Positions 1,861 to 45,498 of a stretch of DNA of 64,000 nucleotides are shown here, piece after piece. The DNA comes from Teredinibacter franksiae (GTDB lineage Bacteria > Pseudomonadota > Gammaproteobacteria > Pseudomonadales > Cellvibrionaceae): the NCBI RefSeq assembly GCF_014218805.1, contig NZ_JACJUV010000004.1, forward strand, positions 1-64,000, in the 5' to 3' direction. The position numbers and the translations under genes were made by a program. How positions within the stretch are numbered: position 1 is the stretch's first letter; each line of letters begins with the position of its first letter. Under the pieces are notes generated by a model. It was not told the DNA's origin, searched no databases, and worked only from the letters and a program-made list of their open reading frames with translations.

Positions 1861-2328
1861 GTATTTGTCCAATTTGAATGATTCGCTCGATTTCGCCTAA
1901 CGGGCCGTCAAATTATATCGTCTATGAAAAGACAATAGCGAAAAATGCTTATTCGAATCACCAATGGCCAACAGGTACACGTTGAAATAGCCGTCCTTAA
2001 TAATGTCCCGGAGATACCGCAATGAACTGGGCTTTCAATGCTGGATTTGCTGAGCGAGAGCCGATCTTGACAAACCGTGAACCTTTTCAGCCGTTGCAGG
2101 CGTTTTGTGGGTTAGAGGTACTAGGGGTTATCTCTTGGTAATGTGGCCCGTTGTTAGTAGGCAATTTGGAGATTCACATAGGAAATTCACAATAGGCGGC
2201 CATGCTCTTTTACGGCCAGGGGGCGGTTGACAAAAATAAGTCACAAATCTAAGCATTGCTTCGTGATCGTAAGTGCCGGTAAGCCTACAATGGCGGCACT
2301 TTATAGCCCTTTATTACAAGGACCATCG
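1861..2328. other. Intergenic region without a convincing gene
   Basis: This 468-bp stretch holds only two very short overlapping frames on the plus strand, 1945-2025 (26 codons) and 2022-2141 (39 codons, joined by ATGA). Neither has a ribosome site or a recognisable product. An upstream in-frame ATG at 2227 extends the next gene but lies outside its signal peptide. A purine-rich AAGGA at about 2318 serves the start at 2329. Confidence 0.5.
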
Positions 2329-3096
2329 ATGAAAGATTTACCTAAGCTAATTGCTGCTTGCTTCTGCTTTCTAATTTGCTCAAGCGTAGTAATGGCAGAG
2401 CAGGGTGAGGATGCCGGCCATCGACTCACGATTATAGATCCCTATGCCGACGTTCACTCTGGCCCCGGTCGTGGATACCCCGTATTTTACGCCATTGAGC
2501 AGGGCGAAACGGTCGATATTCTTGCGCGCCGCCCTGATTGGTATGAAATACGTTTACAGAACGGGCGAACCGGCTGGGTAAGTGCGGCTCAAATCTCTCG
2601 TACGATGCAGGAAACCGGTGAGCCCGCCGATCTACCCAGCGTCAGTTTTGGTGATTACCTAGAAAACAGTGTTCAGGTAGGCTTTTCGTTTGGCAGCTTT
2701 GCCGAGGGTGAGCTAGAGGGCTCTGATTTTTGGAGTGCTAACGCCGGTTACCGTTTTTTAAGTTGGCTGGCCGCAGAAGGCGAGTACGGTAAAGTATACG
2801 GTGAAGATATTCGCGGAGATTTTTACGGCTTAAACGCAATGTTGGAACCATTTTCACAATGGCGGCTTTCACCATACTTACTGTTGGGTGCAGGCAGTAT
2901 GGAAATTGATTCACAGCCCAAATTGGTGCCATTGGATATTGAACAATCCGATTACACCAACTGGGGGCTCGGCGGGAACTATTATTTGGGCCGCAACTTT
3001 ATTATTCGCCTTGAATACCGTTCGTATACGGTAACCACAGACAGCAACGACGTGGAGCTTGCTACATGGAAAATTGGATTCAACAGTTTCTTTTAG
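2329..3096 (+). CDS. SH3b-domain outer-membrane beta-barrel protein
   Basis: A 255-residue exported protein. Residues 1-23 are a signal peptide ending VVMAEQ. Residues 33-93 match a bacterial SH3 fold (DVHSGPGRGYPVF, then RRPDWYEIRLQNGRTGWVS), a module that usually binds peptidoglycan or protein ligands. Residues 110-255 are alternating beta strands with a terminal FNSFF, typical of a small outer-membrane barrel. The ATG at 2329, preceded by AAGGA, was chosen over ATG 2227 because it opens directly into the signal peptide. The 3' end overlaps the next barrel gene by 31 bp, so the two are translationally coupled. Function is unknown; context suggests a barrel of the neighbouring trans-envelope machine. 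Confidence 0.75.
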   Translation: MKDLPKLIAACFCFLICSSVVMAEQGEDAGHRLTIIDPYADVHSGPGRGYPVFYAIEQGETVDILARRPDWYEIRLQNGRTGWVSAAQISRTMQETGEPADLPSVSFGDYLENSVQVGFSFGSFAEGELEGSDFWSANAGYRFLSWLAAEGEYGKVYGEDIRGDFYGLNAMLEPFSQWRLSPYLLLGAGSMEIDSQPKLVPLDIEQSDYTNWGLGGNYYLGRNFIIRLEYRSYTVTTDSNDVELATWKIGFNSFF

Positions 3097-3668
3097 GTCG
3101 ACAGTTTAAAGCCTGTTTACTGGCCTCAACGATTGTCAGTGCGTCAGTGTTTGCTGGGGGCTTGCGCTCCGTGGATAACGAGGTATTTGAGCTTGGTGTG
3201 AACGCAGGCATGATCAATATAGAAGATTTTGGCAGCGAGCTAACGTTTGGTGTGAGTGGTAGCTTTAAGGCGACGGAAGATTTTTTTCTGCAGGTGAACT
3301 ACTTTCAGGCTACCTCAGATTTGTCATCTTTTGAAAAAAGTCAGGGTCAATTATTCGGCGGGGCCGATAGAGACTTCCGCCATTTTGACTTGCTCGTTGG
3401 GTTGAATATATTTCAATCCGAATTTGCCTTTAAAGGTGGCGACGCAAACTTGGCATCGTTTTACGTTGTAGGTGGTGTGGGTGATACGGCCTTTGGCGGC
3501 GAAGAAAGCTTTACCTACACGTTGGGTGCGGGTTACCAAGTGGCATTCAATCGCCACTATATTGTTAAGCTGGACTACCGCAATTACACCTACGATTCAA
3601 ATTTGAGTGACGATGATAAGACGGTAAATAACGGTGGTTTCAGTCTCGGCGTGAACTATCTGTTTTAA
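3066..3668 (+). CDS. Outer-membrane beta-barrel domain protein (OMP_myx_plus-like)
   Basis: A 200-residue protein with a signal sequence (about residues 10-31, ending VFAGG) and a beta-barrel body ending in GVNYLF, the C-terminal aromatic expected for outer-membrane insertion. It resembles the barrel family found in myxobacteria and some gammaproteobacteria near gliding-type gene sets. The ATG lies inside the upstream gene, and no other start codon exists before the signal peptide. GGAG at about 3054 is its ribosome site, so the 31-bp overlap is probably real. Its sequence parallels the minus-strand barrel at 3879-4550 (NVEDF/NIEDF, FQATS/YTQATT, SLGVNYLF), suggesting duplication. Confidence 0.75.
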   Translation: MENWIQQFLLGRQFKACLLASTIVSASVFAGGLRSVDNEVFELGVNAGMINIEDFGSELTFGVSGSFKATEDFFLQVNYFQATSDLSSFEKSQGQLFGGADRDFRHFDLLVGLNIFQSEFAFKGGDANLASFYVVGGVGDTAFGGEESFTYTLGAGYQVAFNRHYIVKLDYRNYTYDSNLSDDDKTVNNGGFSLGVNYLF

Positions 3669-3878: not shown

Positions 3879-4550
3879 TTAAAATAGGTAGTTAACACCA
3901 AGCGAAAACTCGATATTCTGCGTTAGCTTGTCGTCGCCTATGAATTCGCGATTAAACATATGGTCGCGAATATCAACATTTACAGTGATGAAATCAGTGA
4001 AAACGGTGCGATAGCTAGCCCCGAAAACAAACGAAACTGAGTCGTTACCGGCAAAGCTTGCCTGGCCCAGTCCGCCTAACAGGTAGAGTTCCGAGTCAAT
4101 TTTAGCGCTTCGGCCAAAGAATGATCGACCATTTAGCACTCGGTATCCACCGAGCACTTCAATTGCACTGAATTTTCTATCGGAATCCGCTAAGAAATCC
4201 TGGTCTGCCAGCTCTTCGAACGTGGCTCGCTCAGTCGTAGCTTGTGTGTACCGCAGCTCAGCAAGTACCCCATCCATCAGGCGCCATGTGAAAGACAGCC
4301 CCGTGGAAAGGTTGGCATTGAAATCTTCGACGTTTAAAACCCCGAGATGCAAACCTATTTCGAACCTTTCGGTGTCAATTTCGGCTGCTTTGGCCTCTAT
4401 GGGCTTTTTCTCCGGTTCGATGATCACTTCTTTGGCGGGTTTGTTGATATCACCTATGGTTCCGCCCTGAGCAAGTACTAGAGAGGGCGTTAAAAGTAGC
4501 GCCAGTGCTGAGGCAGCCAAAGAAGGCGGTGTAATCTTAAGACTATACAT
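3879..4550 (-). CDS. Outer-membrane beta-barrel domain protein, paralogue
   Basis: A 223-residue exported barrel protein. Residues 1-28 are a signal peptide (ending LVLAQ), residues 29-60 a Lys/Glu-rich periplasmic stretch, and the rest a beta-barrel ending SLGVNYLF, the same C-terminus as the protein at 3066-3668. ATG 4550 is preferred over the ATG at 4598 because GGGGAAA stands just upstream and the signal peptide begins there. It is transcribed away from the operon beginning at 4814, so the 263-bp gap is a divergent control region. Likely role: an outer-membrane element of the same system, by family and neighbourhood only. Confidence 0.75.
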   Translation of the reverse strand: MYSLKITPPSLAASALALLLTPSLVLAQGGTIGDINKPAKEVIIEPEKKPIEAKAAEIDTERFEIGLHLGVLNVEDFNANLSTGLSFTWRLMDGVLAELRYTQATTERATFEELADQDFLADSDRKFSAIEVLGGYRVLNGRSFFGRSAKIDSELYLLGGLGQASFAGNDSVSFVFGASYRTVFTDFITVNVDIRDHMFNREFIGDDKLTQNIEFSLGVNYLF

Positions 4551-4625
4551 GAGGTTTCCCCGGTAGTTTGAAGCGCAATAATAGAAAAGTGGTCGCAAAG
4601 GTGGTGTTATCTGGTTCTCATCTCA

Positions 4626-4643
4626 CACACCCCGAGGGGTGTG
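4626..4643. promoter_or_regulatory. Perfect palindrome in the divergent control region
   Basis: CACACCCC GA GGGGTGTG is an 8-bp-arm inverted repeat midway between the divergent barrel gene (start 4550) and the machine operon (start 4814). A TTGACT hexamer follows at 4676-4681 with AT-rich TATGTTATGT downstream, but the spacing to a -10 is not canonical. An operator for a dimeric regulator is the simplest reading. Confidence 0.35.
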
Positions 4644-4813
4644 ATAGTAGGAATTTATTACTAATTCCAGTATGTTTGACTCACATACTTTATGTTATGT
4701 TGTGTTGGTCGCTGCCCTTGTAATCCGCTTAGCGACTGACCACGAGAATTGGTTAAAAAGGAATTTGGCCGGTTACATCTTACTCAAATACGAATCCCTT
4801 TAGAGTTTGTACG

Positions 4814-5443
4814 ATGTCTGGAACCTTCTATTCGCTGCTACTGGCAGCATCATTTACGGTTATGTGTTCTGTGTCGACGGTTTCCGCGCAAGACGCAACA
4901 AATACCGATAATTCGAAAGACGCCAGCTGGGCCGAGAACGTCGATGCCGCGCAGTTTAAAGAACAGCAGCCCGAAGGCGAAGCAAAGAGTTTGGATGAGT
5001 TGAAGGCCATCGCAAAAAACATCCAAGCACTTAAGGTTGATGTGATAGAGCTCAACAAAGACCTCAGGAAAATGGAAGAAAAACTACTCTTCCCCTCTAA
5101 TACGCGCTTCTCTATTTTTGTTTCGCTTACCACAGGCCAGTTTTTCACCTTTGAAAGCGTAAAGTTGAAGTTGGACGATAAGCTGGTAGCCACCCATATA
5201 TACTCAGACAAGCAGCGTCAGGCCTTGGCGCGTGGCGGTATTCACAAGCTTTACGTTACCAATCTGAATGAGGGATTGCATACCGTTACCGCGTTTTTTA
5301 CCGGTATAGGCGATGATGGCCGCCCCTACAAGCGGGCTGCAAATTTAGAGTTTGAAAAGAGTATTGGCAGTGAATTTCTGGAGCTTGCAATAATGGATGA
5401 CGGAGCAACCCAGGAACCCGTATTTGAGCTGAAGCGCTGGTAG
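4814..5443 (+). CDS. Exported protein, first gene of the trans-envelope operon
   Basis: A 209-residue protein with a signal peptide (residues 1-25, ending TVSAQ). A charged linker and a short coiled-coil (about residues 60-92, LKAIAKNIQALKVDVIEL) precede a C-terminal beta-rich domain with LYVTNLNEGLHTVTAFFTG. I do not recognise a characterised family. It opens the run of co-directional genes to 14019, with 11 bp to the next start, and is predicted to be periplasmic. The ribosome site is weak. The beta domain resembles periplasmic Ig-like folds, but that is only an impression. Confidence 0.7.
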   Translation: MSGTFYSLLLAASFTVMCSVSTVSAQDATNTDNSKDASWAENVDAAQFKEQQPEGEAKSLDELKAIAKNIQALKVDVIELNKDLRKMEEKLLFPSNTRFSIFVSLTTGQFFTFESVKLKLDDKLVATHIYSDKQRQALARGGIHKLYVTNLNEGLHTVTAFFTGIGDDGRPYKRAANLEFEKSIGSEFLELAIMDDGATQEPVFELKRW

Positions 5444-5454
5444 GAGCTATTACC

Positions 5455-7170
5455 ATGCGTTATGCCAGTAAATTAAAACTGTACGCTACCTTGCTAGGCT
5501 TAGTTTTGGCTTGGCCAGCTGCGGCACAGTTAAAATCTCATGTGGTTTCGTCCGAAGACTTGGAGTACGGGCCCGTACTGTTCGAGTTTTACCAGCAAGA
5601 CTATTTCTATGGTTTAGTTGAAGATGCTACCTTGGCTGCCAGCGGTAACCGCGTCGCGGGGTCGAATTCAGCAAGGCTGTTGGGCGGCAGCATGATGCTG
5701 CGTTATGCGCTGCCAGAGCAGGCAGAAGCCATTTTCACCCGGTTGCTATCCAATACTAAAAGCAGCGATATTCGCAACAGGGCCTGGTATCACCTGGCAC
5801 GGCTTTATTACAACCGCTCAGACCGCACCAACGCCAATCGAGCTTTAGGGCAAATTACCGGTGAACTACCGCGTGACCTGCACGTTGACTACCATTATTT
5901 GGCTTCCTTAATCAAAAACGATGGCAGCCATCTTCAGAGCGTAAGTGAAGCCGCTTTGCTTTATGCCGACGAATCACCCGAGTACTCCTACCTGTTGTTC
6001 AACCTCGCCGTCACCCAGTTACGGGGGGGCAATGTGTTTGAGGCCGTAATGAAACTGGAGCAGTTGGCCGGGTACAGTGGCACAAATCGCGAAATGTTGG
6101 CCCTTGCCGACCGGGCAAAGCATGGTTTGTCGCAAATGGCCACCCAGGCTAAGGACTTACCTAGGGCATGGCGATACCTCACCGGCATTCGCACAACAGG
6201 GCTTTATTCTAACCGTGCGCTATTATCCTACGCATGGACGGCTATCAATATGAAGTTGTTTCAGGAAGCAATTCCTGCGCTGCAAATTCTTGATCAGCGC
6301 TCAATAGCCATCCCTGAGGTGCAGGAAGGCAAAGTACTGTTAGCCCACCTATACGAGCAGGAGGGTTCTCCGCGCAAAGCGCTGAAAAGCAATGTTTTGG
6401 CGGAGAAGGCGTTTAAGCAAGGGCTAGCGGACCTTTCGGAAGCTCGCCGTATCATAGCGATGCGCGATGTGCCGCGCGAATTTATTGAAAACTTAGAATC
6501 GATCATGGACGAAACCGACTGGTACAGCGCCCATGCCAGTGTGGATTACCGGAAACTAACGCCTTTCCTCATCGATTTGATGGCAAGTCACCCCTTTAAC
6601 GAAACCCTTAAAGATTTAATCGCGCTGTACGCGCTAGAAGACAACCTAAACTACTGGCTCTCCCAAACATCAGAGCATCAATTAGTTTTGGCCAATTCAG
6701 CCGACAAAAGCGTGGAAACGGATATGGCAGAATTACTGGCGCGCAGCGAAGGAATTAACGAGCGGCTGCGTGACCAAAAAACGGAAATTCAATTGCTAAC
6801 GCTAACTCTCGAAGACGAAGAAAGAGAGCGTTTTGACGTACTGATAGAAAATGCAGAACATGACTTGGTAATACTCGAAGATAAAATTCGTCAATTGCGA
6901 AAGGATAAAAAAGCCTACGTGCAGCCAAAAGGGCACAAAAGCCTAGTAAAAGCTAATCATCAACGAATTACCAAGCAACTCTCGATAACCCAGCGTTACA
7001 TCGCCAGTTTAGAGCCTGTAGTGCGCAAATTAGTGCGCGTAGAGCTGGATAAGCATGAAGAGAGAATGCGATATTACTGGGCGCAATCGCGTTTGGCGAA
7101 AGCGCGTTTATTTGATAGTACCTTGCTGCAACTTGAAAACAACAAGGCCCCCGCGGAGAGTCAGAGGTAA
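5455..7170 (+). CDS. Periplasmic TPR / coiled-coil protein
   Basis: A 571-residue exported protein. Residues 1-24 are a signal peptide (ending WPAAAQ). Residues 50-300 contain degenerate helical TPR-like repeats (for example RNRAWYHLARLYYNRSD and SYLLFNLAVTQLRGGNVFEA). Residues about 400-560 are strongly charged coiled coil (LLTLTLEDEERERFDVL, then DLVILEDKIRQLRKDKKAY). AGGAG stands before the ATG. The gene is 11 bp after the preceding gene and 3 bp before the TPR lipoprotein gene. TPR arrays of this kind act as scaffolds, and here probably link periplasmic parts of the machine. No enzyme motif is visible. Confidence 0.75.
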   Translation: MRYASKLKLYATLLGLVLAWPAAAQLKSHVVSSEDLEYGPVLFEFYQQDYFYGLVEDATLAASGNRVAGSNSARLLGGSMMLRYALPEQAEAIFTRLLSNTKSSDIRNRAWYHLARLYYNRSDRTNANRALGQITGELPRDLHVDYHYLASLIKNDGSHLQSVSEAALLYADESPEYSYLLFNLAVTQLRGGNVFEAVMKLEQLAGYSGTNREMLALADRAKHGLSQMATQAKDLPRAWRYLTGIRTTGLYSNRALLSYAWTAINMKLFQEAIPALQILDQRSIAIPEVQEGKVLLAHLYEQEGSPRKALKSNVLAEKAFKQGLADLSEARRIIAMRDVPREFIENLESIMDETDWYSAHASVDYRKLTPFLIDLMASHPFNETLKDLIALYALEDNLNYWLSQTSEHQLVLANSADKSVETDMAELLARSEGINERLRDQKTEIQLLTLTLEDEERERFDVLIENAEHDLVILEDKIRQLRKDKKAYVQPKGHKSLVKANHQRITKQLSITQRYIASLEPVVRKLVRVELDKHEERMRYYWAQSRLAKARLFDSTLLQLENNKAPAESQR

Positions 7171-7173
7171 CCT

Positions 7174-10008
7174 ATGAGATATTCCGTATTAATGACTGTA
7201 ATTCTGCTATCGGCTTGCGGTGGTTCGAACAAGCACAAAACACTTGGACAGCTAGAGTACGAGCCCGAGCAAGAGACGGAGATTGCCGTAACTCAAATGG
7301 ATCATCAGCAGGTTCGTGAAGAATACCGCGAGCTGATGGACCTGTTTGAAGATAAGCTGCTAAGGGAGCAAATAGAGCGTCGTATCGCCGATGTTTACAT
7401 GATGGAAGGCGTGCAGGAACAAAACAGTGAACAGGGCAAACCTAAGAGTCACTACGTTGAGGCTATAAAATCGTACCGGGATATTTTGGAGAAGTACCCT
7501 AATTCTCCCGATAACGCAGAGGTTCTTTATCAGCTCGCAAAAGCCTACGACATGGAAGGTGAGCAGGATGAAGCCTTGCGAATGCTTGAGCAGTTAACCA
7601 GGCTGCATCCATACTACGGCAATATTGGCGAGGCGTGGTTTCGCATGGGGGACATCTATTTTGGCTACCAGCGCTATGCTAAAGCCGAGCATGCCTATAG
7701 CGAGGTTGCCCGATTAACAGAAGCGAAATATGCGGTTAACGCCTATTACATGCTGGGTTGGGCCCAATATAAGCAAATGAGTTATCGCAAAAGCCTAAAT
7801 GCATTCGCTTATGTAATGGATTCCCTGCTCTCTGAAACAAGCGATGTTGATAGCTTGAGCAAAGCCCACCAGTCGATGGTAGGCGATACATTACATTCAA
7901 TCAGCCTAGCTGTAGATAAAGTGGGTGGAGCAGAAACAATCAAAACGGTTTCAGCCTTTAATAACAAAGCCTACGTGTGGCGGGTATACGATGATCTTGG
8001 AGGACATTATCTCGAAAAAGAATTTTACGAGTATGCCGCCGAATCATTTCGAGAATTTGTAACGCTATACCCTCAGAGTGAGGTTGCGCCTAGGTTGCAC
8101 AAAAAGATGGTAGAAACCTATGTGACGGGTGGGTTCCCCACGCAGGCCATTGAAGAAAAAGAATCTTATGTGAAGGCCTACGGAATTAACGCTAGTTATC
8201 TGGGTAATGCTGATGGAATTCGAGCGGACATTCAGATCACGCTAAAAACTTATCTGGAAGAGCTGGCGCAACACAACCACTCCGGCGGACAAGATTTCCT
8301 CGTTAGCGCTGAAAAGAAAAAGCAAGAAAAGGTTAGCGCCAGGAAAATAGCCAATATCGAATCGAAGGCCGCGGTATTTTTGGCAAAAGCTGCCGATTAT
8401 TATCAGCAGTTTATCGATACCTTCCCTGCTGATGTGCGCGTTGATGAGATGCGCTTTATGAAGGCTGAAGTGCTATTTGAGGCGAGTAAGTTTGAAAAGG
8501 CCATTCCAGAGTACGAATTGGTTGCTTACCAGCCCTTAGGTGACAGCGCCAAAGAGCACGCTGCAAATGCCGGGTATGCTGCGATTGTGAGCTATGAAAA
8601 AGTCATTGATTTAAAAGTGGATGGCAGCAAGGAGAAAAATCATTGGCAGTCGCAAGCGATAGAAAGCATGTTGCGATTCTCTGAAAAATTTGACAGCGAT
8701 GAGCGGTCACCTTCCGTACTGACCAGCGCTGCGGATTACATGTTTAGCTTGAATCAGTATCAGCGGGCAGTAGCCATTACCAGCCAGCTGATTGCTAACA
8801 ATACTAATCTGGATGCGAGCCTAAAGAAAACCGCCTACGGGATTATGGCGCACTCATGGTTTAAGTTGGATGAATTTGTTGAGTCCGAAAATGCCTACAG
8901 CAATCAGCGCAGCTTAGTTGCCCCTGGAACGGAAGAGTACGGTGAAATATCCGAACGTCTCGCGACAGCCGTATATAAGCACTCCGAAGGTTTGGCTGAC
9001 ACGGGAGATAAGGCTGCCGCTGCTGAGAGCTTTCTCAGAATTAAACAGTTGGCGCCGGGTTCCGTTGTGCGCGCCACCGCACAATATGATGCTGTAGCGA
9101 TGTTGCTTGCCTTGGAAGAATGGTTGCGCGCTATTCCAGAATTGAAGGATTTGATCGCTAACTATTCCAATCACAAAATGGCTGTAGAGTTTCCGAGGCA
9201 GCTTGCGTTTGCTTACGAAAAAAGTGAGCAATGGCAGCTTGCTGCCGACGAATATTTGGCGCTCAGTAAAAACGACCCAGAGGCGGAAGTAAAACGTGAA
9301 GCACTATTCGTTTCGGCCTCCATGTATGAAAAAAACAAGAACCACACCACGGCAATTACGCTGTTTAAAAGATACGCTTACAACTACGAACAGCCATTTG
9401 ACACACGAATGGAAGCGCGTTTTCATCTGGCGACAAATTATGAAAAAATCGGTGAAATAGGCAAGAAACTGTACTGGTTACGTCGGATTGTTGACGGTGA
9501 CAAAAAGAGTGGGAGTCAGCAGACAGATCGCAGTCGTTGGTTAGCCGCTTGGGCCAATATGGAGTACGCCAACTACTTTGCTGAGGAGTTTGAGCAAGTG
9601 TCGTTAAGGCTGCCGTTGGTAAAAAGCTTGCCGAGGAAGAACGAGAAGCTACAAAGCGCTTTGCAGCGCTATCAAGCTGCAGCAGACTACGGGTTTCTTG
9701 AGTTTGTGACGGAGTCGAGCTTTAAAATAGGACGCCTGTACCAAACCTTCGCTAAGGCGCTTCGTGATTCCCCCATTCCGGCTGGAATGGCCGAAAATGA
9801 AGTGAGCTTGTACAGGGAAATTATTGAAGAGCAGGCGTTTCCGTTTGACTCTTTGGCAACTGAGGTACACACGGCAAATGTCAGCCGCGCATGGAATGGT
9901 GGCTTTAATGAATGGATTTCACAAAGTTTTGATGCGATGCGGGTGTTAAACCCTGCAAGATTTAACAAAGACGAATTAATTGTGAGCTATGGTGATGAAA
10001 TCCGTTAA
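7174..10008 (+). CDS. Large TPR lipoprotein (AglT-like scaffold)
   Basis: A 944-residue lipoprotein. The lipobox LLSAC puts the acylated Cys at residue 15. Tandem TPR helices run through most of the protein, recognisable at YRDILEKYPNSPDNAEVLYQ, AWFRMGDIYFGYQRYAKAE and FREFVTLYPQSEV, with further repeats to residue ~860. In the Myxococcus gliding locus, TPR lipoproteins such as AglT sit beside TolQ/TolR homologues; the present layout matches that idea, though orthology cannot be shown here. The residue after the Cys is Gly, not Asp, so outer-membrane sorting is expected. Its 3' end overlaps the next gene. Confidence 0.8.
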   Translation: MRYSVLMTVILLSACGGSNKHKTLGQLEYEPEQETEIAVTQMDHQQVREEYRELMDLFEDKLLREQIERRIADVYMMEGVQEQNSEQGKPKSHYVEAIKSYRDILEKYPNSPDNAEVLYQLAKAYDMEGEQDEALRMLEQLTRLHPYYGNIGEAWFRMGDIYFGYQRYAKAEHAYSEVARLTEAKYAVNAYYMLGWAQYKQMSYRKSLNAFAYVMDSLLSETSDVDSLSKAHQSMVGDTLHSISLAVDKVGGAETIKTVSAFNNKAYVWRVYDDLGGHYLEKEFYEYAAESFREFVTLYPQSEVAPRLHKKMVETYVTGGFPTQAIEEKESYVKAYGINASYLGNADGIRADIQITLKTYLEELAQHNHSGGQDFLVSAEKKKQEKVSARKIANIESKAAVFLAKAADYYQQFIDTFPADVRVDEMRFMKAEVLFEASKFEKAIPEYELVAYQPLGDSAKEHAANAGYAAIVSYEKVIDLKVDGSKEKNHWQSQAIESMLRFSEKFDSDERSPSVLTSAADYMFSLNQYQRAVAITSQLIANNTNLDASLKKTAYGIMAHSWFKLDEFVESENAYSNQRSLVAPGTEEYGEISERLATAVYKHSEGLADTGDKAAAAESFLRIKQLAPGSVVRATAQYDAVAMLLALEEWLRAIPELKDLIANYSNHKMAVEFPRQLAFAYEKSEQWQLAADEYLALSKNDPEAEVKREALFVSASMYEKNKNHTTAITLFKRYAYNYEQPFDTRMEARFHLATNYEKIGEIGKKLYWLRRIVDGDKKSGSQQTDRSRWLAAWANMEYANYFAEEFEQVSLRLPLVKSLPRKNEKLQSALQRYQAAADYGFLEFVTESSFKIGRLYQTFAKALRDSPIPAGMAENEVSLYREIIEEQAFPFDSLATEVHTANVSRAWNGGFNEWISQSFDAMRVLNPARFNKDELIVSYGDEIR

Positions 10009-10774
10009 ATGCAAGGTAGTTGGCCTGTTGGCAATCGTCTCGCTGCTAGCGGGCTGTGGTGCTTCCAATCTCTCCAAAAACGATGCACAGCAGGGCATTG
10101 AACGCCAGGTTGTGGATACTGCTGTATATCTGCCTACCGATAGTTTCGATAAGGACGGCAATCTGCTGCCATACCTGCCGAGGCCCAACCCCTATGCTGA
10201 AAAGGGCGGGCGCATAAAAAAGCAGTCTGTAGCGCGCTATATTGAAGCTCGCCGTGCTTTTAAAGCTAATAACTACGCTTCTGCACAAGCTAACCTTGAA
10301 TCGCTGGTGAGCGAAGATAGGAGCCTGTCAGGCCCCTGGGTAATGCTAGGTGATATTGCCTTGGCACAGGAGGACGCCGACAAGGCTGAGCTACATTTCC
10401 GTGAGGCTATCTCCGTCAACCCCAATAATATTAACGCTAAGCTCCGTTTGGCAAGGCTGTTACGGTTAAAGGGTGAGTATATCGACGCACAGAATGTTTA
10501 TGCCGAGGCGTTGGCAATCTGGCCCGATTTCCCTGAGGGCCATCTTAATTTGGCCATACTCTACGATCTATACATGAATAAACCTCTGCAAGCTCAGCAG
10601 CACATGGAAAGCTACCAGTTTTTAACCGATGGCAAGAACGAGCAGGTAAAGGCGTGGCTTTCCGAAATTCGAATGCGTACAGGTGTTGAATATTCAATTG
10701 ATGCGGGTGCAAAGAAGTCGGTACAGGCCGCTAAGAACGAACCTCAGCTCTCCGTCGCAGGAGGTGCTGAATGA
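9995..10774 (+). CDS. TPR lipoprotein
   Basis: A protein of about 259 residues with lipobox LLAGC and three or four TPR units (residues ~85-210, for example ARRAFKANNYASAQANLES and DADKAELHFREAISVNPNN). The start lies inside the end of the previous gene. ATG 9995 gives about nine bases from GTGAG; ATG 9989 is possible but too close. It overlaps the next gene through ATGA. Expected location is the outer-membrane inner leaflet. Likely a small scaffold partner of the 944-residue lipoprotein. Confidence 0.78.
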   Translation: MKSVKCKVVGLLAIVSLLAGCGASNLSKNDAQQGIERQVVDTAVYLPTDSFDKDGNLLPYLPRPNPYAEKGGRIKKQSVARYIEARRAFKANNYASAQANLESLVSEDRSLSGPWVMLGDIALAQEDADKAELHFREAISVNPNNINAKLRLARLLRLKGEYIDAQNVYAEALAIWPDFPEGHLNLAILYDLYMNKPLQAQQHMESYQFLTDGKNEQVKAWLSEIRMRTGVEYSIDAGAKKSVQAAKNEPQLSVAGGAE

Positions 10775-11127
10775 TTAAGTTGTATGGCTCCGCATACGGG
10801 GTTGTTGTGTTCGCCTCTTTGGTGACGGTTGGCGCAATGGCCGCGGACGATGAAGCAAAAAAAACCGCTACGGCCGATGATGAAGAGCCTAATGCCTATT
10901 ACAAACTTGAATCCACCTTTGTGGGTGATAAAGAGCAGCCAGCGGTCAGTTATTTTATTCCCTGGCAGGGCACGTCTACGCCAGACAAACTGCAGTGGAA
11001 CCTGGATGTGAAATACGACCAGACGTTAAATTTAATTGATCGTGAAGTTGTTGTTCGGTCTATGAATATTTACGACGAAATGAATTTGGAGACGCCACAG
11101 GCCGCTACGGTTCCTGTGAGCGAATAA
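10771..11127 (+). CDS. Small exported protein of the operon
   Basis: A 118-residue protein with a signal peptide (residues 1-24, ending GAMAAD), an acidic spacer and a compact C-terminal region (KLQWNLDVKYDQTLNL). I do not recognise it. The start overlaps the upstream stop (ATGA) and is preceded by GGAGG. A 60-bp gap then leads to the ExbB-type gene. Being placed between the lipoproteins and the inner-membrane motor, it may be a periplasmic adaptor; this is inference from position only. Confidence 0.65.
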   Translation: MIKLYGSAYGVVVFASLVTVGAMAADDEAKKTATADDEEPNAYYKLESTFVGDKEQPAVSYFIPWQGTSTPDKLQWNLDVKYDQTLNLIDREVVVRSMNIYDEMNLETPQAATVPVSE

Positions 11128-11187
11128 ACGCAAATAGTTTTAGGTAACAGTTGGCAGCTTTGCTACCGGCAAAAGAGAGACAGGGTT

Positions 11188-11976
11188 ATGACAGACGCAT
11201 ACAGTATCATTGTTAAGTTCTTCCAAGAGGGTGGGTTTTTTATTATGCCCATTGGCATAGTGCTGTTTATCGGCCTCGCCATTTCTGTTGAGAGATGGAT
11301 GTTTCTCACACGTGAAAAAATTCGCAATCAAAAAGCTTTTTCCGAATTTGTACCGCTCTTGCGCTCGACTGAAATGGAAAAAATGCACATGTATACGCGG
11401 GAAAATACAGCCGCAGTTGTGCGTATTATTGGTTGCGGGCTCGACATGATGAAGGTTACACGTCAGCGCGCCGATATTGAAAATGCGATGAATGAAGGCA
11501 TGCTAGAGTCATTGCCACGCTTGGAGCAGCGCACTGGCTACTTGGCCGTACTGGCAAATGTTGCCACGCTACTTGGTCTTCTCGGTACCATTATCGGCCT
11601 TATTGGCGCTTTTACCGCCGTTGCTAACGCCGACCCCGCCGAAAAATCTACGTTGCTATCTACATCTATTTCCGTGGCTATGAATACTACGGCATTCGGC
11701 TTGATCGCCGCTATTCCGCTGTTGGTTCTTAACGCAATAATCCAGAACAAGGCCAAATCGATCATCACGAGTATCGAAATGTCGGCTGTAAAGTTTTTAA
11801 ACATTATGACCTTGCATCGCTTTATTGAGGCCAGCATGCCTCGTGTACTGGCTCCGGCTGGCTCTCAGGCAAGTTTTGCTGAAACACCTTACCCCGCCGC
11901 ACAGGTAGAAGCGGGGGTTGCACCTAAAGAGGCCGGCCCCGATCAGGCCGATGACGGAACCATGGTTCCGGCTTGA
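11188..11976 (+). CDS. ExbB/TolQ/MotA-type proton channel subunit
   Basis: A 262-residue inner-membrane protein of the MotA/TolQ/ExbB family, the pentameric channel that couples proton flow to trans-envelope work. TM1 is near residues 13-33, a cytoplasmic domain follows, and TM2/TM3 are near 120-145 and 165-188 with the family motifs LLGLLGTIIGLIGAF and SISVAMNTTAFGLIAAIP. The C-terminal ~35 residues are an Ala/Pro-rich tail not usual in ExbB. Two ExbD genes and a TonB-like gene follow within 11, 3 and 1 bp, giving a complete motor. In Myxococcus the equivalent is AglR. Confidence 0.9.
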   Translation: MTDAYSIIVKFFQEGGFFIMPIGIVLFIGLAISVERWMFLTREKIRNQKAFSEFVPLLRSTEMEKMHMYTRENTAAVVRIIGCGLDMMKVTRQRADIENAMNEGMLESLPRLEQRTGYLAVLANVATLLGLLGTIIGLIGAFTAVANADPAEKSTLLSTSISVAMNTTAFGLIAAIPLLVLNAIIQNKAKSIITSIEMSAVKFLNIMTLHRFIEASMPRVLAPAGSQASFAETPYPAAQVEAGVAPKEAGPDQADDGTMVPA

Positions 11977-11987
11977 GTATCTAACTG

Positions 11988-12500
11988 ATGAAATTCAAAT
12001 TTTCATACAAAGGTACCGACGACGAAGAGTTGGACGTTACATCGTTCATGAATCTCATGATTGTATTGGTACCGGTGTTATTGCTGAGCATGACCTTTAC
12101 CCAAGTAACGGTGTTGGATGTAAAGCTGCCGGACCTTACCGGTGGTGCATACAACAGTGAAGACTCGCAATCGCAATTGGAAGTGGTGGTTGATCATCAA
12201 GGATTTCAGGTGGTGTACCCGGCGAATGTTGTTATTAAAGCCATCCCCTTGAAAATGGAAACTTTGGAGTCCGGTGAAGAAATCGAAAATCTGGATTATT
12301 TAATGCTGTCCAAAGTATTGCAGGAAGTAAAACGACAACTACCCGAAAAACGTGATGCGGTGGTAAAAGCTAATGCCGGTGTGAGCTATCAAAATTTAAT
12401 TTCTACCATGCAAGCCGTAAAGTCGTATCAGACAGTTATCGCAGCAAGCATGGTTGAAGTTGAACTGTTCCCGGAAATATCCCTGGGTGACGAGAGTTAA
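11988..12500 (+). CDS. ExbD/TolR-type stator, Asp replaced by Asn
   Basis: A 170-residue ExbD-family protein: short cytoplasmic N-terminus, one TM helix (about residues 20-38) and a periplasmic domain. The family signature before the helix reads VTPFID in E. coli ExbD; here it is LDVTSFMN, so the proton-carrying Asp aligns with Asn22. The neighbouring ExbD (12504-13049) keeps its Asp. The periplasmic part has the usual beta-alpha fold with LPEKRDAVVKANAGVSYQ. It is co-transcribed with the ExbB-type gene. It probably pairs with the second ExbD as a heterodimer inside the channel ring. Confidence 0.88.
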   Translation: MKFKFSYKGTDDEELDVTSFMNLMIVLVPVLLLSMTFTQVTVLDVKLPDLTGGAYNSEDSQSQLEVVVDHQGFQVVYPANVVIKAIPLKMETLESGEEIENLDYLMLSKVLQEVKRQLPEKRDAVVKANAGVSYQNLISTMQAVKSYQTVIAASMVEVELFPEISLGDES

Positions 12501-12503
12501 GCC

Positions 12504-13049
12504 ATGATTGGTCAAACTGTATTTTATAATCGCGGAAATCAAGGGCCATCGGCTAAATTAAGCTTGGTTGCTCTCATGGATATTTTTACTATTCTTGTCT
12601 TTTTCTTGCTTTTGAATTCCGGCGATAGTCAAAATGTAGAGCAGGCTCAATTTGTAAAGCTACCAGACTCCAGTTCGGGGAAAGCTCCACACGCCGATTT
12701 AATGGTAGTCGTGGGTGATGAGCAACTCTGGGTAGGAGAAGAATCGATCACAACGGTAGAGCCCATTATTGGTGATCCTGATAAGTTAATAGCACCCTTG
12801 CAGGCAGCATTAACGCTACACAAAGAAAAGATGGGAGAGCTAACACCCTTCGAAAAAGATAACGGTTTATCGCTCACTATTGTCGGCCACCGCGATGTAC
12901 CTTACAGCTTGGTGCGCAGTGTTATGGCAACGTGTCGTGAGCAAGGTTTCCGCAATATCTCGCTGGCGGTAAACCGTGTTGCAGCTGATATTCAGCTTGG
13001 TACTGCACCTGCGCTACCCGCGGTAGCTTCGAATGCAGGAGGGCAGTGA
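12504..13049 (+). CDS. ExbD/TolR-type stator with conserved Asp
   Basis: A 181-residue ExbD-family protein. The single TM helix starts at LSLVALMDIFTILVFFLL, with the proton-binding Asp at residue 26. The periplasmic domain (residues ~45-165) ends with NISLAVNRV, the typical last strand of ExbD. It starts 3 bp after the first ExbD and ends 1 bp before the TonB-like gene. Two unequal ExbD proteins next to one ExbB parallels AglQ/AglS with AglR in Myxococcus. Confidence 0.88.
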   Translation: MIGQTVFYNRGNQGPSAKLSLVALMDIFTILVFFLLLNSGDSQNVEQAQFVKLPDSSSGKAPHADLMVVVGDEQLWVGEESITTVEPIIGDPDKLIAPLQAALTLHKEKMGELTPFEKDNGLSLTIVGHRDVPYSLVRSVMATCREQGFRNISLAVNRVAADIQLGTAPALPAVASNAGGQ

Positions 13050-13050
13050 A

Positions 13051-14019
13051 ATGCAGTCTGTCGTTCATCATTCAGAACCGCTTGCGCTGGACCTGCGGTT
13101 GCCGTGGGAAGAAGACGAGGCTCAGGAGCAAAAGTTTCAAAAACTGTTAAAACGTTTTTTGCTGCCCCTGCTAATATTTTTATTTTTTGTCCCGTGGCTT
13201 CCCGTATTTGATCTAAGTTACGAAGAAAAAGAATCTACCGAGGTGGTAACCACCGTTATGCTCGCTCCACTCGAGCAAATAGCGCCTCCACCTATAGAAG
13301 AGAAACCCGTTCGCGCTGCAAAGCCCAAAGCGGTTGCCAATGTAACCCCGGACCAGCCCAAGCCAAGCCCGAAAATGGCCCAGAAAAAAACACCCAAGAT
13401 AAAACAGGATAGCAAGAACGCCTTAAAACAAAGTCAGGGTTTGAATGAACTGTCGTCACAGTTAGCGGCTTTGCGCGGTACTTTGGATGTTAAGCGTCTA
13501 CAAAATCGAAACGTTACGAGTAGTACGCAGGGCGAGGTAAAGCGTAGCTCCCGAGAGTTTCTGGGCACCGATGGTGCGGTAAAGCGAAGCGACGGCATTG
13601 AAGTTGATGAAAACATGCTTAGTAGCAACAGTGATGGGCTTGCGGCCTATCAAGCAACAGCGGTAGATGGGTTGGGTCTTGGAGACTCGCCGGTGAGTAC
13701 CTTGGCGAGTCACAGTTCATATAAAAAAGGCCAGCGTGATATGGAAAGTATTCGTAGAACGCTGGAGCGTACCAAAAGCAGTGTTCACAGCCTGTACCAG
13801 CAGGCGTTGCAGGATCATCCTGAGCTTGCGGGCAAATTCACCTTTAAATTAGTGATAGAGCCCGATGGCTCCATTTCAAAGTTGAATTTACTTGCAAGTG
13901 AGCTAGGTATTTCACAGTTGGAATCCAACATTCTTGAGCGCATTAGGGTTGTTAATTTTGGAGCGAAAGAGGTGTCACCGACGATAGTGGAATACAAGTT
14001 TGTCTTCCTTCCGAGTTAA
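13051..14019 (+). CDS. TonB-like protein with AgmX/PglI C-terminal domain
   Basis: A 322-residue inner-membrane protein. A cytoplasmic N-terminus (~40 residues) precedes one TM helix (LLPLLIFLFFVPWLPVF), a Pro/Lys-rich periplasmic spacer (residues ~75-130), a Gly/Ser linker and a C-terminal domain (~235-322) reading IRRTLERTKSSVHSLYQQAL, then HPELAGKFTFKLVIEPDGSI. That last part is the AgmX/PglI-type TonB-fold domain known from myxobacterial gliding proteins. AGGAGGG at 13037-13043 fixes the ATG at 13051, not the earlier ATG at 13033. It should transmit motor motion across the periplasm to the TPR lipoproteins or barrels. Confidence 0.85.
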   Translation: MQSVVHHSEPLALDLRLPWEEDEAQEQKFQKLLKRFLLPLLIFLFFVPWLPVFDLSYEEKESTEVVTTVMLAPLEQIAPPPIEEKPVRAAKPKAVANVTPDQPKPSPKMAQKKTPKIKQDSKNALKQSQGLNELSSQLAALRGTLDVKRLQNRNVTSSTQGEVKRSSREFLGTDGAVKRSDGIEVDENMLSSNSDGLAAYQATAVDGLGLGDSPVSTLASHSSYKKGQRDMESIRRTLERTKSSVHSLYQQALQDHPELAGKFTFKLVIEPDGSISKLNLLASELGISQLESNILERIRVVNFGAKEVSPTIVEYKFVFLPS

Positions 14020-14439
14020 CCGCTTCACAAAACAATAATTTGCCGGAGCGTATGCGTAGCGAATGGCATGGCTAATTCGTTATACTGGCCGATCTTGCCT
14101 AGAAATTCATGCTCGAGTACCAGAACTAAAAGCCCATTAGCACAAGTACTCATAAAACAGTTCACATAAAAAGTGTTTTCCAGGCCACAAATTAAGTAAA
14201 AATAGACCTTTTGATGGAAAAAACTAACACGTTTGGGGGTTTGTGCCAGCGGATTAGATCAGTAAATGCCATTCTAAGGTTGTAAGCAGCTTTGGCTGCA
14301 AGTGCGTAAGCAGGACGCTGTGAGGATTGGAGTGAAAGCCCAACGACCAAAGAGTCGAATTTCACTTGTAACCAATCGCATTGGGGTACGCTGGCTAATG
14401 GAGAACTTGTGCAGATTGAGAACATTTGGAGTAAGCAAA
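14020..14439. other. Leader region before the fibro-slime lipoprotein gene
   Basis: This 420-bp gap contains no gene. An in-frame ATG at 14302 would add 46 residues ahead of the lipoprotein signal and is not believed. TTGGAG at 14426-14431 is the ribosome site for 14440. No clear terminator follows the operon, so the downstream gene could be read through or have its own promoter here. Confidence 0.45.
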
Positions 14440-17400
14440 ATGTACCAGAATATCAGATCGCAGATAAGTCGTATCGCTCTGTTGTCAACTGTGCTGACGG
14501 TGGCCGCTTGTGGCGGCAGCGGTGACGAGCAGGCGGCAGCAACCGTTTCTGCCGTCCAGAATTCGATCACTACAGACACCCCATTTCTTTTCGTTGAGCG
14601 CAATACAGAGCAATCCGTTGCCCAAAATCAGCAAAAGCTAACGGCATCCCTCTACGATTCAGCCCAAAGTCCCTTAGATGTTTACTCTCCTTATGAGTTT
14701 AGCCCTGGTGCAAAGTTGGTTCGTCGATCAAGCCTAGATGTTAACGGCGTAAACGATGAGCTGCTAAACGACTATTTCGGCTCTTCAGACTACGATGTAA
14801 AAGACCTCAGTGTTTCCTACGATGGTGCTCTCGTACTTTTTGCCGCCCATGGGCCAGATAACCATCCCACTGACTTTAGCTGGAATATCTATGAGTACGC
14901 GTTTGAGTCAAACAGTGTTCGTCGTGTTATTGAAGACGTTGTAGTAGCTAATAGCGGTGAGGACACAAACCCAGCGTATACGCTTGAAGGCGTCATCGTC
15001 TTTTCATCAGACCGTGCGGCAGGCAACCCTAACCACCCAGCAGTAGATGACGTAGAAAAAACCTCTCCAGATGAAGACTGTTACAAAGTCGGGGCCAATG
15101 AGAAGCCTTCGCTGCTACATTCCATGTCTGAAGAAGGCGAAACTATTCTTCAGCTAACCTATGGTAATTATCACGATATTCAGCCAACCAGCCTTACCGA
15201 TGGCCGTGTTGCTTTCCTGCGCTGGTCCCGCAGCTATGAATTGCTTCCTCAATGTGGCACGACTACAGGTTTAAGTAAGCCTACCGCTGATACTTTGTTT
15301 CAAAGTGATTACCCCGACGGCATTACCGCACCCTCCGATTGGGAAAATGGTGAAATATGTGCGTTCGCACAGGCAACTCCGTTTGGTTCGGTAATCGCTA
15401 CAAACCATTACACCTTGCTTCGCATCAGTGCTGATGGTTCTGGATTGGAGCAACTGTACGAAACTGTTGACACTCACGCGTCCGACGAAAGCATGCTTCA
15501 TCTGCAGGATTTGATTCAAAGTGAAAATGGCCGACTGGTTACTTTACTTAAGCACCGCTACAACCAGTTTCTGGGGGGCAACCTGATGGAGCTGGCGGAG
15601 CCAACCCGGACTGCGAGCGGAACGATATTTTCCAATATGGCAATGAAGCCGGTGATCAGTGATGACGTAAGCCTGTTTCCCAATCAGGTTTCCGTTGCCG
15701 GATGGTACAGCGCCGTATCTCCTTACCGGGATGGTTCTTCACGTATTCTTGTAAGTTGGTCGCAATGTACGACCACAGCCAAAGGCGTAAGTGATTTTTG
15801 TGCATCAGACGATGAGTCCGCCGATCTCGATAATGCTTATGGTATATGGATGTACGACCCGGCTAATGATTCTAGGTTGCCTATTGTGCGTGCGAAGGCG
15901 GGCATGCAATACACCGAACTGGCCATAAGCCAGCCTCATCAGGGCAATGATTTTCCTTTTGAGCCTTACGACACAGCGTATCGCCCAGATACCGACGATA
16001 GCCGGATTATTTGCGACGACCCCGGTGTGGTGGTGACGCCAGAGCCTAGCTATGAGCCAACTGCAGAGCCAACATTAGAGCCTACGCTTTTACCAACGGC
16101 TGCGCCTACGGAAGGCCCAAATACTCCTCCTACGGCTCCACCCGTTGTGGTACCGACAGTTATACCAACCGTGGCACCCACTATCACGCCTACCGGAGCG
16201 CCAACAATAACGCCTACGGTTGTGCCCACGGTTACACCTACCAGTGGCCCTACAGTAATCCCTCTTCCAACGCCTACGCCTGTTCCGACCGTTACACCGA
16301 GTGTAGCGCCAAGCGTTGAACCAACCGTTGAACCAACTGTTGAACCGACTGTAGCGCCAACCGTTGAACCAACTGTTGAACCGACTGTAGCGCCAACCGT
16401 TGAACCAACTGTTGAGCCGACCGCTGAACCAACCGCTGAACCAACTGTTGAGCCGACCGCTGAACCAACCGTTGAACCAACTGTTGAACCAACCGTTGAA
16501 CCAACTGTTGAACCAAGCCCAGAAAACATAGTGCCTGTTGCCGATGCGGGCATAGATCAATCAGCTCAACCAGGCGACCAAGTAACGCTTGATGGCTCCG
16601 GTAGTAACGATGCCGACGGTGACAGCCTTACTTATATCTGGAGATTGGTTAGCGGGCCCAGTGAACCTGAGCTGATGAATGGAAACCCCGTGCAACCGCA
16701 ATTTGTTGCATTAGACGAGGGGGCCTATACCTTTGAACTAATTGTTAACGATGGTACAGACGATAGCCTGCCAGACACCGTCATTATCAACGCAGACAAC
16801 TCTGTACCGGTAGCCGATGCTGGAGAAGACCAATCTGTTAGCGCCGGTGAGTTAGCTCAGCTGGATGGCAGCGGCAGTTACGATGCCGACGGCGATGCCC
16901 TTATCTACAATTGGGTCGTGGTTAGTGTACCGGCCGGTTCAGCAGCAACATTGACTGATGCAGAGTCTATAACGCCTGAAATCAACATCGATGTAGCGGG
17001 CCGTTATGTGTTCCAGCTTATAGTGAACGATGGCTTAGTTAACAGTGAGCCAGACACCGTTGAATTGGCCACGACTAACGTTCGGCCGATTGCTGACGCT
17101 GGCGTGGATGCGTTTACCTATGCGGCTCGAGAAGTAACGCTAGACGGTTCGGGTAGTTACGATGCCGATGGCGATAGCCTTGAATACAGCTGGAGTGTAG
17201 TGAGCGAACCCACAGGCAGCACTGCAGACTTCGATATGGGCAATGCTGTTACGCCATCATTTACGGCTAGCCACAGTGGTATCTATGTATTGCAGCTAAT
17301 CGTGAGCGATGGCACGCAAGACAGCCTGCCCGACACCGTTTCAATTACGGTCGAAGAGGGTGGACAATGCAGTACATCCAGTGCAGAAAATACCCGTAGT

Positions 17401-19486: not shown

Positions 19487-19491
19487 AACAG

Positions 19492-45121: not shown

Positions 45122-45274
45122 TTTGAGCCCCAATAGCTATAAAGATAATAAGCAATTGAGGGAGGCATCACGAGGAAGATAAAGGCTTTGGTGGGCCCCA
45201 GGGCAGAAAAACAGAAAAGCTATAGCGCCCTGAATCAGTCCTGGATGGAAGCCCTCCGCTCCATCAACGAACGC

Positions 45275-45400: not shown

Positions 45401-45498
45401 AGGGCGCACTCTAGGGCCAATGGCGCCCAAAGTCAATTAGGGAGTTTGATGTAGGAGTCATTGGCACAGACGGTTTGATACAGCGCAACCGATTAAGG

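What the first reader, a model, noticed from the sequence alone, without database searches (positions are those of the whole stretch)
4814..14019. Compact operon for a proton-driven trans-envelope machine of the Agl/AgmX type
Nine genes run with gaps of at most 60 bp: exported protein, TPR/coiled-coil protein, two TPR lipoproteins, small exported protein, one ExbB/TolQ channel, two ExbD/TolR stators, and a TonB-like protein with an AgmX/PglI C-terminal domain. Barrel genes of a family seen in myxobacteria lie next to it. The content matches the Myxococcus AglR-AglQ-AglS, AglT and AgmX components more than the standard TonB or Tol-Pal systems (no TolA, TolB, Pal or receptor). It is a good candidate for an uncharacterised motor that moves or assembles a surface structure in this group.
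Basis: partly seen in the sequence, partly recalled or inferred. Interest (0 to 1): 0.82.

Follow-up and report, generated by a model that had tools for sequence, protein, structure and literature searches.

The report
Proton-driven envelope machine with surface adhesin
A block of 13 neighbouring genes in a wood-digesting marine bacterium appears to build a proton-powered machine, related to the one that lets myxobacteria glide, that spans the cell envelope and probably works on a sticky surface protein; this gives a concrete, testable guess for what these widespread machines of unknown purpose do.

Summary
In detail: nine tightly packed genes (4814-14019) encode an ExbB, two ExbDs, a GltG/AgmX-type transducer, three TPR-type proteins (two of them lipoproteins) and two small exported proteins. 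It is not an unknown kind: Luciano et al. 2011 described this 'core complex' in Gammaproteobacteria, Teredinibacter included, without a function. What is new here is its extent and possible cargo. That lipoprotein is a TolB-like beta-propeller joined by a Pro/Thr linker and PKD domains to a fibro-slime domain. The fibro-slime domain is present in 16 of 17 orthologues scanned; the 17th has a von Willebrand A domain, the domain type of the Myxococcus adhesin CglB. A paralogous propeller-lipoprotein/barrel operon often lies near the related core elsewhere in Gammaproteobacteria. One ExbD of the pair lacks the proton-binding Asp (0 of 240 nearest relatives have it). Best reading: a force-transducing machine acting on a surface adhesin, probably for attachment to polysaccharide, not gliding as such. 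The unit is well supported; the direction of force, the substrate and the surface exposure are inferred.

The parts
2227..3096 (+). SH3-domain outer-membrane barrel protein
   Evidence: SH3_3 45 bits, OMP_b-brl 34 bits, OMP_myx_plus 23 bits; in 12 of 12 non-genus A-type loci
3066..3668 (+). outer-membrane beta-barrel 1 (OMP_myx_plus)
   Evidence: TIGR04565 100.6 bits, cut-off 60; 12 of 12 loci
3879..4598 (-). outer-membrane beta-barrel 2 (OMP_myx_plus)
   Evidence: TIGR04565 115.3 bits; 18 of 18 A- and B-type members match; 12 of 12 loci
4814..5443 (+). gene 1: exported coiled coil plus beta-sandwich, 209 aa
   Evidence: AlphaFold pLDDT 81.5; no family hit; also present in B-type loci
5455..7170 (+). 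gene 2: exported TPR/coiled-coil protein, GltC-like position
   Evidence: TPR_6; profile match to the GltC-like protein of the genome's D cluster, probability 83, E 9e-6
7174..10008 (+). gene 3: large TPR lipoprotein, GltD-like position, 944 aa
   Evidence: TPR/YbgF/BamD-type repeats; lipobox by eye
9989..10774 (+). gene 4: TPR lipoprotein, GltE-like position, 261 aa
   Evidence: TPR; GltE model 30.3 bits, below its cut-off of 225 and not the best-scoring TPR model; lipobox by eye
10771..11127 (+). gene 5: small exported protein, 118 aa
   Evidence: no family; in 12 of 12 loci
11188..11976 (+). gene 6: ExbB/TolQ/AglR-type channel
   Evidence: PF01618 86.5 bits
11988..12500 (+). gene 7: ExbD1, Asn22 in place of the transmembrane Asp
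   Evidence: PF02472 48.9 bits; Asn in 19 of 19 rows, 14 Asn and 1 Ser of 15; no Asp in 240 listed relatives
12504..13049 (+). gene 8: ExbD2, transmembrane Asp26 kept
   Evidence: PF02472 47.4 bits; Asp in 19 of 19 rows and 89 of 89 relatives of the D-type ExbD2
13033..14019 (+). gene 9: GltG/AgmX-type transducer
   Evidence: NF033768 61.9 bits, cut-off 40; GltG 55.7 bits, cut-off 650
14440..18006 (+). lipoprotein: TolB-like propeller, Pro/Thr linker, PKD domains, C-terminal fibro-slime domain
   Evidence: TIGR02148 99.8 bits; propeller model pLDDT 83.6, TolB matches; Cys24 invariant in 17 of 17
14509..16026 (+). propeller domain of that lipoprotein, residues 24-529

Best explanation
The 13-gene block 2227-18006 encodes one proton-motive-force-driven, envelope-spanning machine of the Agl-Glt class. 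ExbB (gene 6) with an ExbD1/ExbD2 pair forms the inner-membrane motor. Gene 9 carries the force through the periplasm, helped by the TPR proteins (genes 2-4) and the small exported proteins (genes 1, 5). At the outer membrane it works on the three barrels and on the propeller lipoprotein, the way TolA works on the TolB propeller. The lipoprotein's linker, PKD and fibro-slime parts form the substrate-binding adhesin. Most likely job: to deploy, pull or move this adhesin, so that attachment to a polysaccharide surface is under mechanical control. Shown here: gene content, linkage, domain architecture, domain swap in one orthologue. Inferred: complex formation, surface exposure, substrate, direction of force.
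For: Conserved block with clear edges: barrels and genes 1-9 in 12 of 12 non-genus loci, propeller within the fetched 20 kb in 11 of 12; the twelfth (G013) has its propeller/fibro-slime gene on the same contig, about 12-16 kb away. Up to two ORFs on each side of the block show one cross-match between loci (27% identity, opposite sides) and one match to a window gene (HD-GYP, 31%). Fibro-slime over cut-off in 21 of 120 family genomes; all 21 are among the 23 that carry this type of propeller, and in 20 of 21 the domain lies downstream of this type of agmX on the same contig and strand. Domain swap: fibro-slime in 16 of 17 orthologues, von Willebrand A in the other. A paralogous propeller lipoprotein-SH3 barrel-barrel operon lies near the B-type core, within 30 kb in 12 of 27 genomes. 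In 24 class genomes with agmX, the barrel over its cut-off and the propeller occur in the same 17, adjacent in 17 of 17, and within 21 kb of agmX in 10 of 17. In the family, the propeller is in 97 of 108 genomes with agmX and 1 of 12 without. Literature: in Fibrobacter a TPR-TPR-ExbB-ExbD-ExbD-TonB gene run is 1.2- to 1.7-fold more abundant on cellulose together with four fibro-slime proteins (PMC6851124), and FSU_2396, FSU_2397, FSU_2078 and fibro-slime FSU_2502 were proposed to form one vesicle complex (PMC8092306).
Against: None of the passages I read reports an experiment on this operon. Surface exposure of the lipoprotein is not shown. In 7 of the 17 class genomes no listed AgmX hit is on the contig of the propeller/barrel operon, and 7 of the 24 have neither propeller nor barrel over cut-off. 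In 15 of 27 family genomes the B-type propeller is more than 30 kb from the core or on another contig; 11 of 108 agmX genomes lack a propeller match. GH6 cellulases are in 17 of 23 A-type genomes against 34 of 97 others (p 0.0009), but by genus only 9 of 14 against 5 of 18 (p 0.07), and 6 A-type carriers have none. Shipworm gill symbionts probably do not touch cellulose in the host (PMC10734418). The propeller's Z to TolB is only about 1-2 above its Z to the best LRP-type propellers. That FSU_2396-2403 is the same core is my inference from gene names and from Luciano's statement that Fibrobacter has the core; no sequences were compared.
Confidence: 0.55

Rival explanations
1. Assembly or export machine: the motor powers transfer of the propeller lipoprotein (or a polysaccharide) across the outer membrane via the barrels, like the Nfs system of Myxococcus that works on the spore-coat polymer; the adhesin is the product, not a moving part.
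For: Nfs uses the same motor class for a surface polymer (PMC3858216); barrels are linked to the propeller lipoprotein.
Against: No polysaccharide-synthesis family among the 10 neighbouring ORFs scanned; the barrel proteins are short (200-289 aa), so narrow pores are expected (inference).
Confidence: 0.25
2. Gliding or surface motility driven by the machine, as in Myxococcus.
For: Same motor and transducer class; barrels of a family named after myxobacteria; adhesin with FS or VWA domain, like the VWA adhesin CglB (CglB from a review passage).
Against: Luciano et al. [quoted passage not shown] MglA, AglZ, GltI and GltK equivalents were not searched for here.
Confidence: 0.1
3. TonB-like energiser for nutrient uptake, for example cellodextrins, as proposed for the Fibrobacter cluster.
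For: ExbB/ExbD/TonB-like parts; PMC6851124 proposes this for FSU_2400-2403.
Against: No TonB-dependent receptor among 20 ORFs scanned; T. turnerae has four other tonB genes, and tonB1b or tonB2 restores growth of the quadruple mutant on low iron and on CMC (PMC10734418); the membrane helix of gene 9 has no conserved His (24 rows; one row has a His before it and one at its end).
Confidence: 0.06
4. A second Tol-Pal-like envelope-maintenance system with its own TolB.
For: TolB-like propeller; TolQ/TolR-like motor.
Against: No Pal/OmpA domain in the 20 ORFs scanned; the propeller is a lipoprotein fused to an adhesin, and no TolB N-terminal domain was listed for it by Pfam.
Confidence: 0.04

Closest known systems
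Agl-Glt core complex of Gammaproteobacteria (Luciano et al. 2011, PMC3169522; parts 2 and 4 of 8 and passages read)
   Same: One cluster with AglR, AglQ, AglS-type motor, GltG-type transducer and GltC/D/E-type TPR proteins; T. turnerae and S. degradans are named there among duplicated cases.
   Different: The paper lists seven genes plus one extra, and says gltA, gltB and gltH were found only in Myxococcales and Bdellovibrionales. Here three barrels (two clear OMP_myx_plus, one weak) and a propeller-adhesin lipoprotein are part of the conserved block. Whether they are orthologues of gltA, B or H was not tested.
Myxococcus xanthus Agl-Glt gliding machine with adhesin CglB
   Same: Motor, transducer, TPR proteins, OM barrels and a surface adhesin; one orthologue here carries a VWA domain, the type CglB has.
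   Different: One compact locus instead of several; fibro-slime instead of VWA in the window; no FHA domain on gene 9 (no Pfam hit); ExbD1 lacks Asp, whereas a review says AglQ and AglS both are predicted to have it.
Tol-Pal (TolQRA-TolB-Pal)
   Same: TolQ/R-like motor, elongated transducer, TolB-like propeller.
   Different: No Pal among the ORFs scanned; the propeller is lipid-anchored and carries an adhesin; the transducer has the AgmX/PglI domain.
Fibrobacter succinogenes FSU_2396-2404 cluster and fibro-slime proteins (PMC6851124 section 6 part 1 and passages; PMC4619616 and PMC8092306 passages)
   Same: TPR, TPR, ExbB, ExbD, ExbD, TonB by gene number, and fibro-slime partners more abundant on cellulose.
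   Different: Fibro-slime genes have other gene numbers, so lie elsewhere; the authors of PMC6851124 read the motor as a TonB importer; no sequence comparison made here.

Membership tests
Agl-Glt core complex | one AglR-type ExbB and two AglQ/S-type ExbDs | tested here: met
   PF01618 86.5 bits, PF02472 48.9 and 47.4 bits
Agl-Glt core complex | GltG-type transducer with AgmX/PglI C-terminal domain | tested here: met
   NF033768 61.9 bits over its cut-off of 40; the full GltG equivalog model gives 55.7 bits, below 650
Agl-Glt core complex | GltC, GltD and GltE TPR proteins | tested here: inconclusive
   TPR proteins of fitting place and size; GltE model 30 bits only; no NCBIfam hit for gene 2, but a profile match to a GltC-like paralogue with probability 83
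Agl-Glt core complex | genes in one cluster outside Myxococcales | tested here: met
   12 of 12 non-genus loci
Agl-Glt core complex | groups with M. xanthus proteins in trees | not tested
   no Myxococcus sequences were reached
Myxococcus gliding machine | GltA/GltB/GltH outer-membrane barrels | tested here: inconclusive
   broad family OMP_myx_plus matched; orthology not tested
Myxococcus gliding machine | GltI, GltJ, GltK, MglA, AglZ | not tested
   no search made
Myxococcus gliding machine | VWA adhesin (CglB type) | tested here: not met
   window protein has fibro-slime, no VWA hit; one orthologue, L051, has VWA
TonB system | partner TonB-dependent receptor nearby | tested here: not met
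   none among 20 ORFs between 25 and 24721
TonB system | TonB C-terminal domain | tested here: not met
   gene 9: no Pfam family, AgmX/PglI domain instead
Tol-Pal | Pal/OmpA lipoprotein nearby | tested here: not met
   no OmpA domain among the 20 ORFs
TolB | TolB N-terminal domain plus propeller, not lipid-anchored | tested here: not met
   propeller fold matches, and PD40 and TolB models hit 5 of 17 members each, but it is a lipoprotein and no TolB N-terminal domain was listed
Fibro-slime proteins | TIGR02148 domain over cut-off | tested here: met
   99.8 bits, cut-off 45

The most novel reading that the evidence does not exclude
The orphan Agl-Glt core of Gammaproteobacteria is not stand-alone: it is the engine of a widespread machine with its own outer-membrane module (TolB-like propeller lipoprotein plus SH3 barrel and OMP_myx_plus barrel). 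In the Teredinibacter/Cellvibrio family one version of the propeller gained an exchangeable adhesin, giving a force-controlled surface-attachment device, a simpler relative of the myxobacterial focal adhesion. Its rotary motor has a two-chain axle in which only one chain (ExbD2) carries the proton-binding Asp, so that a turn would use half as many protons as in a symmetric ExbBD or MotAB motor.
Probability: 0.3. Interest if true: 0.85.

Novelty: new variant of a known kind. Interest (0 to 1): 0.64.

Why it matters
The gammaproteobacterial core complex was described in 2011 and 2013 papers without a function, outer-membrane parts or cargo. A conserved outer-membrane module and a domain-swapped adhesin next to it make the question testable in a genus where gene deletions have been made (T. 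turnerae; PMC10734418). It would also show how a gliding machine could have arisen from an attachment device, and offers a natural one-Asp axle for testing how 5:2 rotary motors step.

Tried and rejected

Myxococcus sequences were not reached, so orthology of the barrels to GltA/B/H was not tested and the Asp state of AglQ and AglS rests on papers. That E. coli ExbD Asp25 is the matching position is recalled; no E. coli ExbD was aligned. The 240 ExbD1 relatives are the best 120 of each of two capped lists (6806 and 283 hits) and include near-identical copies of the window's own species.

Literature: ten searches. I saw listings (titles and starts of abstracts, several of them capped) and passages of 12 papers; none of these describes a propeller or fibro-slime partner of the Agl-Glt core or a one-Asp ExbD pair. 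The library holds open-licence papers only, so absence from print is not shown.


Full report
WHAT IS THERE. One search confirms nine same-strand ORFs from 4814 to 14019 with a largest gap of 60 bp. By Pfam and NCBIfam they hold one ExbB/TolQ channel, two ExbD/TolR proteins, TPR proteins and a transducer with an AgmX/PglI C-terminal domain (61.9 bits, cut-off 40) that also matches the C-terminal part of GltG (55.7 bits, far below that model's full-length cut-off of 650). Upstream lie an SH3-barrel protein and two OMP_myx_plus barrels.

EDGES OF THE UNIT. Same-type ('A-type') loci were fetched from 15 genomes and 4 more later. In a tblastn matrix of these 19, 12 loci from outside the genus were counted (L046, cut by its contig, was left out): SH3 barrel, barrel 1, barrel 2 and genes 1-9 are each in 12 of 12; the propeller domain of the downstream protein is in 11 of 12 within the fetched stretch; alpha-galactosidase and menA, upstream in the window, are in 0 of 12 and HD-GYP, downstream, in 1 of 12. 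In the twelfth locus (G013) the propeller lies about 12.5 kb and the fibro-slime domain about 15.6 kb from gene 9, same contig and strand. Up to two ORFs on each side of the block were then compared between the 12 loci: one cross-match (27% identity, an upstream ORF of L044 with a downstream ORF of L067) and one match to a window gene (HD-GYP, L050). So the conserved block is 2227-18006, 13 genes.

A SWAPPED ADHESIN. Of 17 orthologues scanned (of 20; two cut by contig ends and one split were left out), 16 have fibro-slime. The other, in G012 (L051), has no fibro-slime match in its genome but a von Willebrand A domain (37.2 bits). A review passage describes the Myxococcus adhesin CglB as a von Willebrand protein recruited by the Glt complex (PMC13104615; the primary paper could not be read).

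ASSOCIATION TESTS. Fibro-slime is over its cut-off in 21 of 120 genomes of the family; three more have weak matches below it. The A-type propeller (E below 1e-200) is in 23 of 120, and all 21 are among them. Of the two without fibro-slime, one is the VWA case and the other (G028) has its gene cut by the contig end. In 20 of 21 the fibro-slime match lies downstream of A-type agmX on the same contig and strand (by hand: 19 within 6 kb, one at 15.6 kb); in G123 the pieces lie on different contigs. In a class sample of 274 genomes 5 others have fibro-slime, none on a contig with an AgmX hit.

A GENERAL OUTER-MEMBRANE MODULE. A paralogous core ('B-type') occurs in the same genome (C1:3127124) and widely. 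Eight B-type stretches, picked because a second propeller lay near, show a propeller lipoprotein of about 900-1000 aa in 8 of 8, followed by an SH3 barrel and an OMP_myx_plus-type barrel in 7 of 8 (the eighth is cut); three of the propeller proteins were scanned and carry PD40 plus HZS_alpha. In 27 family genomes where I could assign both a B-type agmX and this propeller, they lie within 30 kb in 12; in 15 they do not. From the 61 class genomes with AgmX over its cut-off I picked 24, from 22 families. The barrel over its cut-off and the propeller occur in the same 17 of 24 (three more genomes have only weak barrel matches), next to each other in 17 of 17 (2.5-3.8 kb gap), and within 21 kb of AgmX in 10 of 17; in the other 7 no AgmX hit that I took from the capped list is on that contig. 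In the family, the propeller occurs in 97 of 108 genomes with AgmX and in 1 of 12 without (Fisher p 7e-9; relatedness not corrected). I read this as the outer-membrane partner of the core.

THE MOTOR. ExbD1 (gene 7) has Asn where ordinary ExbDs have the proton-binding Asp (position matched to E. coli Asp25 from memory): 19 of 19 rows; 14 Asn and 1 Ser of 15 in a set with more systems; among relatives 106 Asn and 14 Ser of 120 and 120 Asn of 120 for the D-type. ExbD2 keeps Asp in 19 of 19 rows and 89 of 89 D-type relatives. The ExbD1 sets are the nearest 120 of larger hit lists, so they describe this class only. A review states that Myxococcus AglQ and AglS are both predicted to have the Asp (PMC9389320), and AglQ D28N abolishes proton conductance and paralyses that motor (PMC3858216). 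If ExbD1 and ExbD2 pair in the axle, only one chain would bind protons; that pairing is inferred. Gene 9's membrane helix has no conserved His in 24 rows (L042 has one before it, L054 one at its end), unlike TonB and TolA as described in PMC12204202.

PRIOR KNOWLEDGE. Luciano et al. 2011 (PMC3169522; parts 2 and 4 of 8 and passages read) found the seven-gene core in one cluster in Gammaproteobacteria and Fibrobacter, named T. turnerae and S. degradans among duplicated cases, called the function unknown and gliding by the core alone unlikely, and found gltA, B and H only in Myxococcales and Bdellovibrionales. Wartel et al. 2013 (PMC3858216, section 20) suggest a basal transport machinery. In Fibrobacter, FSU_2397, 2398 and 2400-2403 are 1.2- to 1.7-fold up in cellulose-grown envelopes together with four fibro-slime proteins (PMC6851124; peptides in PMC4619616), and FSU_2396, 2397, 2502 and 2078 were proposed as one vesicle complex (PMC8092306). 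The authors of PMC6851124 read the motor genes as a TonB importer; I think the gene order fits the core better, but compared no sequences.

MECHANISM. Proton flow turns or strokes the ExbB/ExbD motor; gene 9 carries force across the periplasm along the TPR proteins; at the outer membrane it meets the barrels and the propeller, as TolA meets TolB; the adhesin domain is presented, tensioned or moved. Steps shown: parts, linkage, domain make-up, domain swap. Inferred: contacts, surface exposure, substrate and force. Fibro-slime and PKD domains suggest polysaccharide, but GH6 carriage is only loosely linked (17 of 23 against 34 of 97; by genus 9 of 14 against 5 of 18), and gill symbionts may never meet cellulose in the host (PMC10734418).

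VERDICT. The core is known; the outer-membrane module, the exchangeable adhesin and the one-Asp ExbD pair were not seen described in the listings and passages of the searches made.

Noticed in passing
L070 (own genome C8:82001-100000): A fourth dual-ExbD cluster that looks more like Myxococcus: GltC-like (NF033756, 65 bits, cut-off 450), OMP_myx_plus barrel (65.7 bits), 823-aa GltG/GltJ-like protein (NF033768, 104 bits), weak CglF hit and a 1165-aa TPR protein. NF033768 hits of 104.7-108.2 bits in 4 of 8 genus genomes.
   Followed up: partly
L055 (own genome C1:489501-509500): A four-gene ExbB-ExbD-ExbD-AgmX set beside a type VI secretion IcmF gene and a kinase/FGE-sulfatase-domain protein; no match there to the window's genes 1-5, barrels or propeller.
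   Followed up: no
L101:9093-12107, L105:2134-4818, L107:2081-4909: B-type propeller lipoproteins carry the middle domain of hydrazine synthase alpha (PF18582, 48-61 bits in the three scanned); why is not known.
   Followed up: no
L101:13959-16424: A Laminin_G/ConA-like lectin-domain protein (822 aa) lies near the B-type propeller operon; ORFs of similar size recur at several of the other B-type stretches (homology not tested).
   Followed up: no
L047:1845-5733 (G007): The propeller and fibro-slime parts are in two ORFs (1845-4019 and 3718-5733, minus strand) rather than one; split gene or assembly error not resolved.
   Followed up: no
window 18239-20925: HD-GYP (DUF3391) phosphodiesterase and PAS histidine kinase follow the block; both also in 4 of 6 other genus loci; possible regulation.
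   Followed up: partly
window 45264-45412: Cobalamin riboswitch on the minus strand, 56.9 bits.
   Followed up: no
window 61135-61522: tRNA-Cys and tRNA-Leu genes.
   Followed up: no
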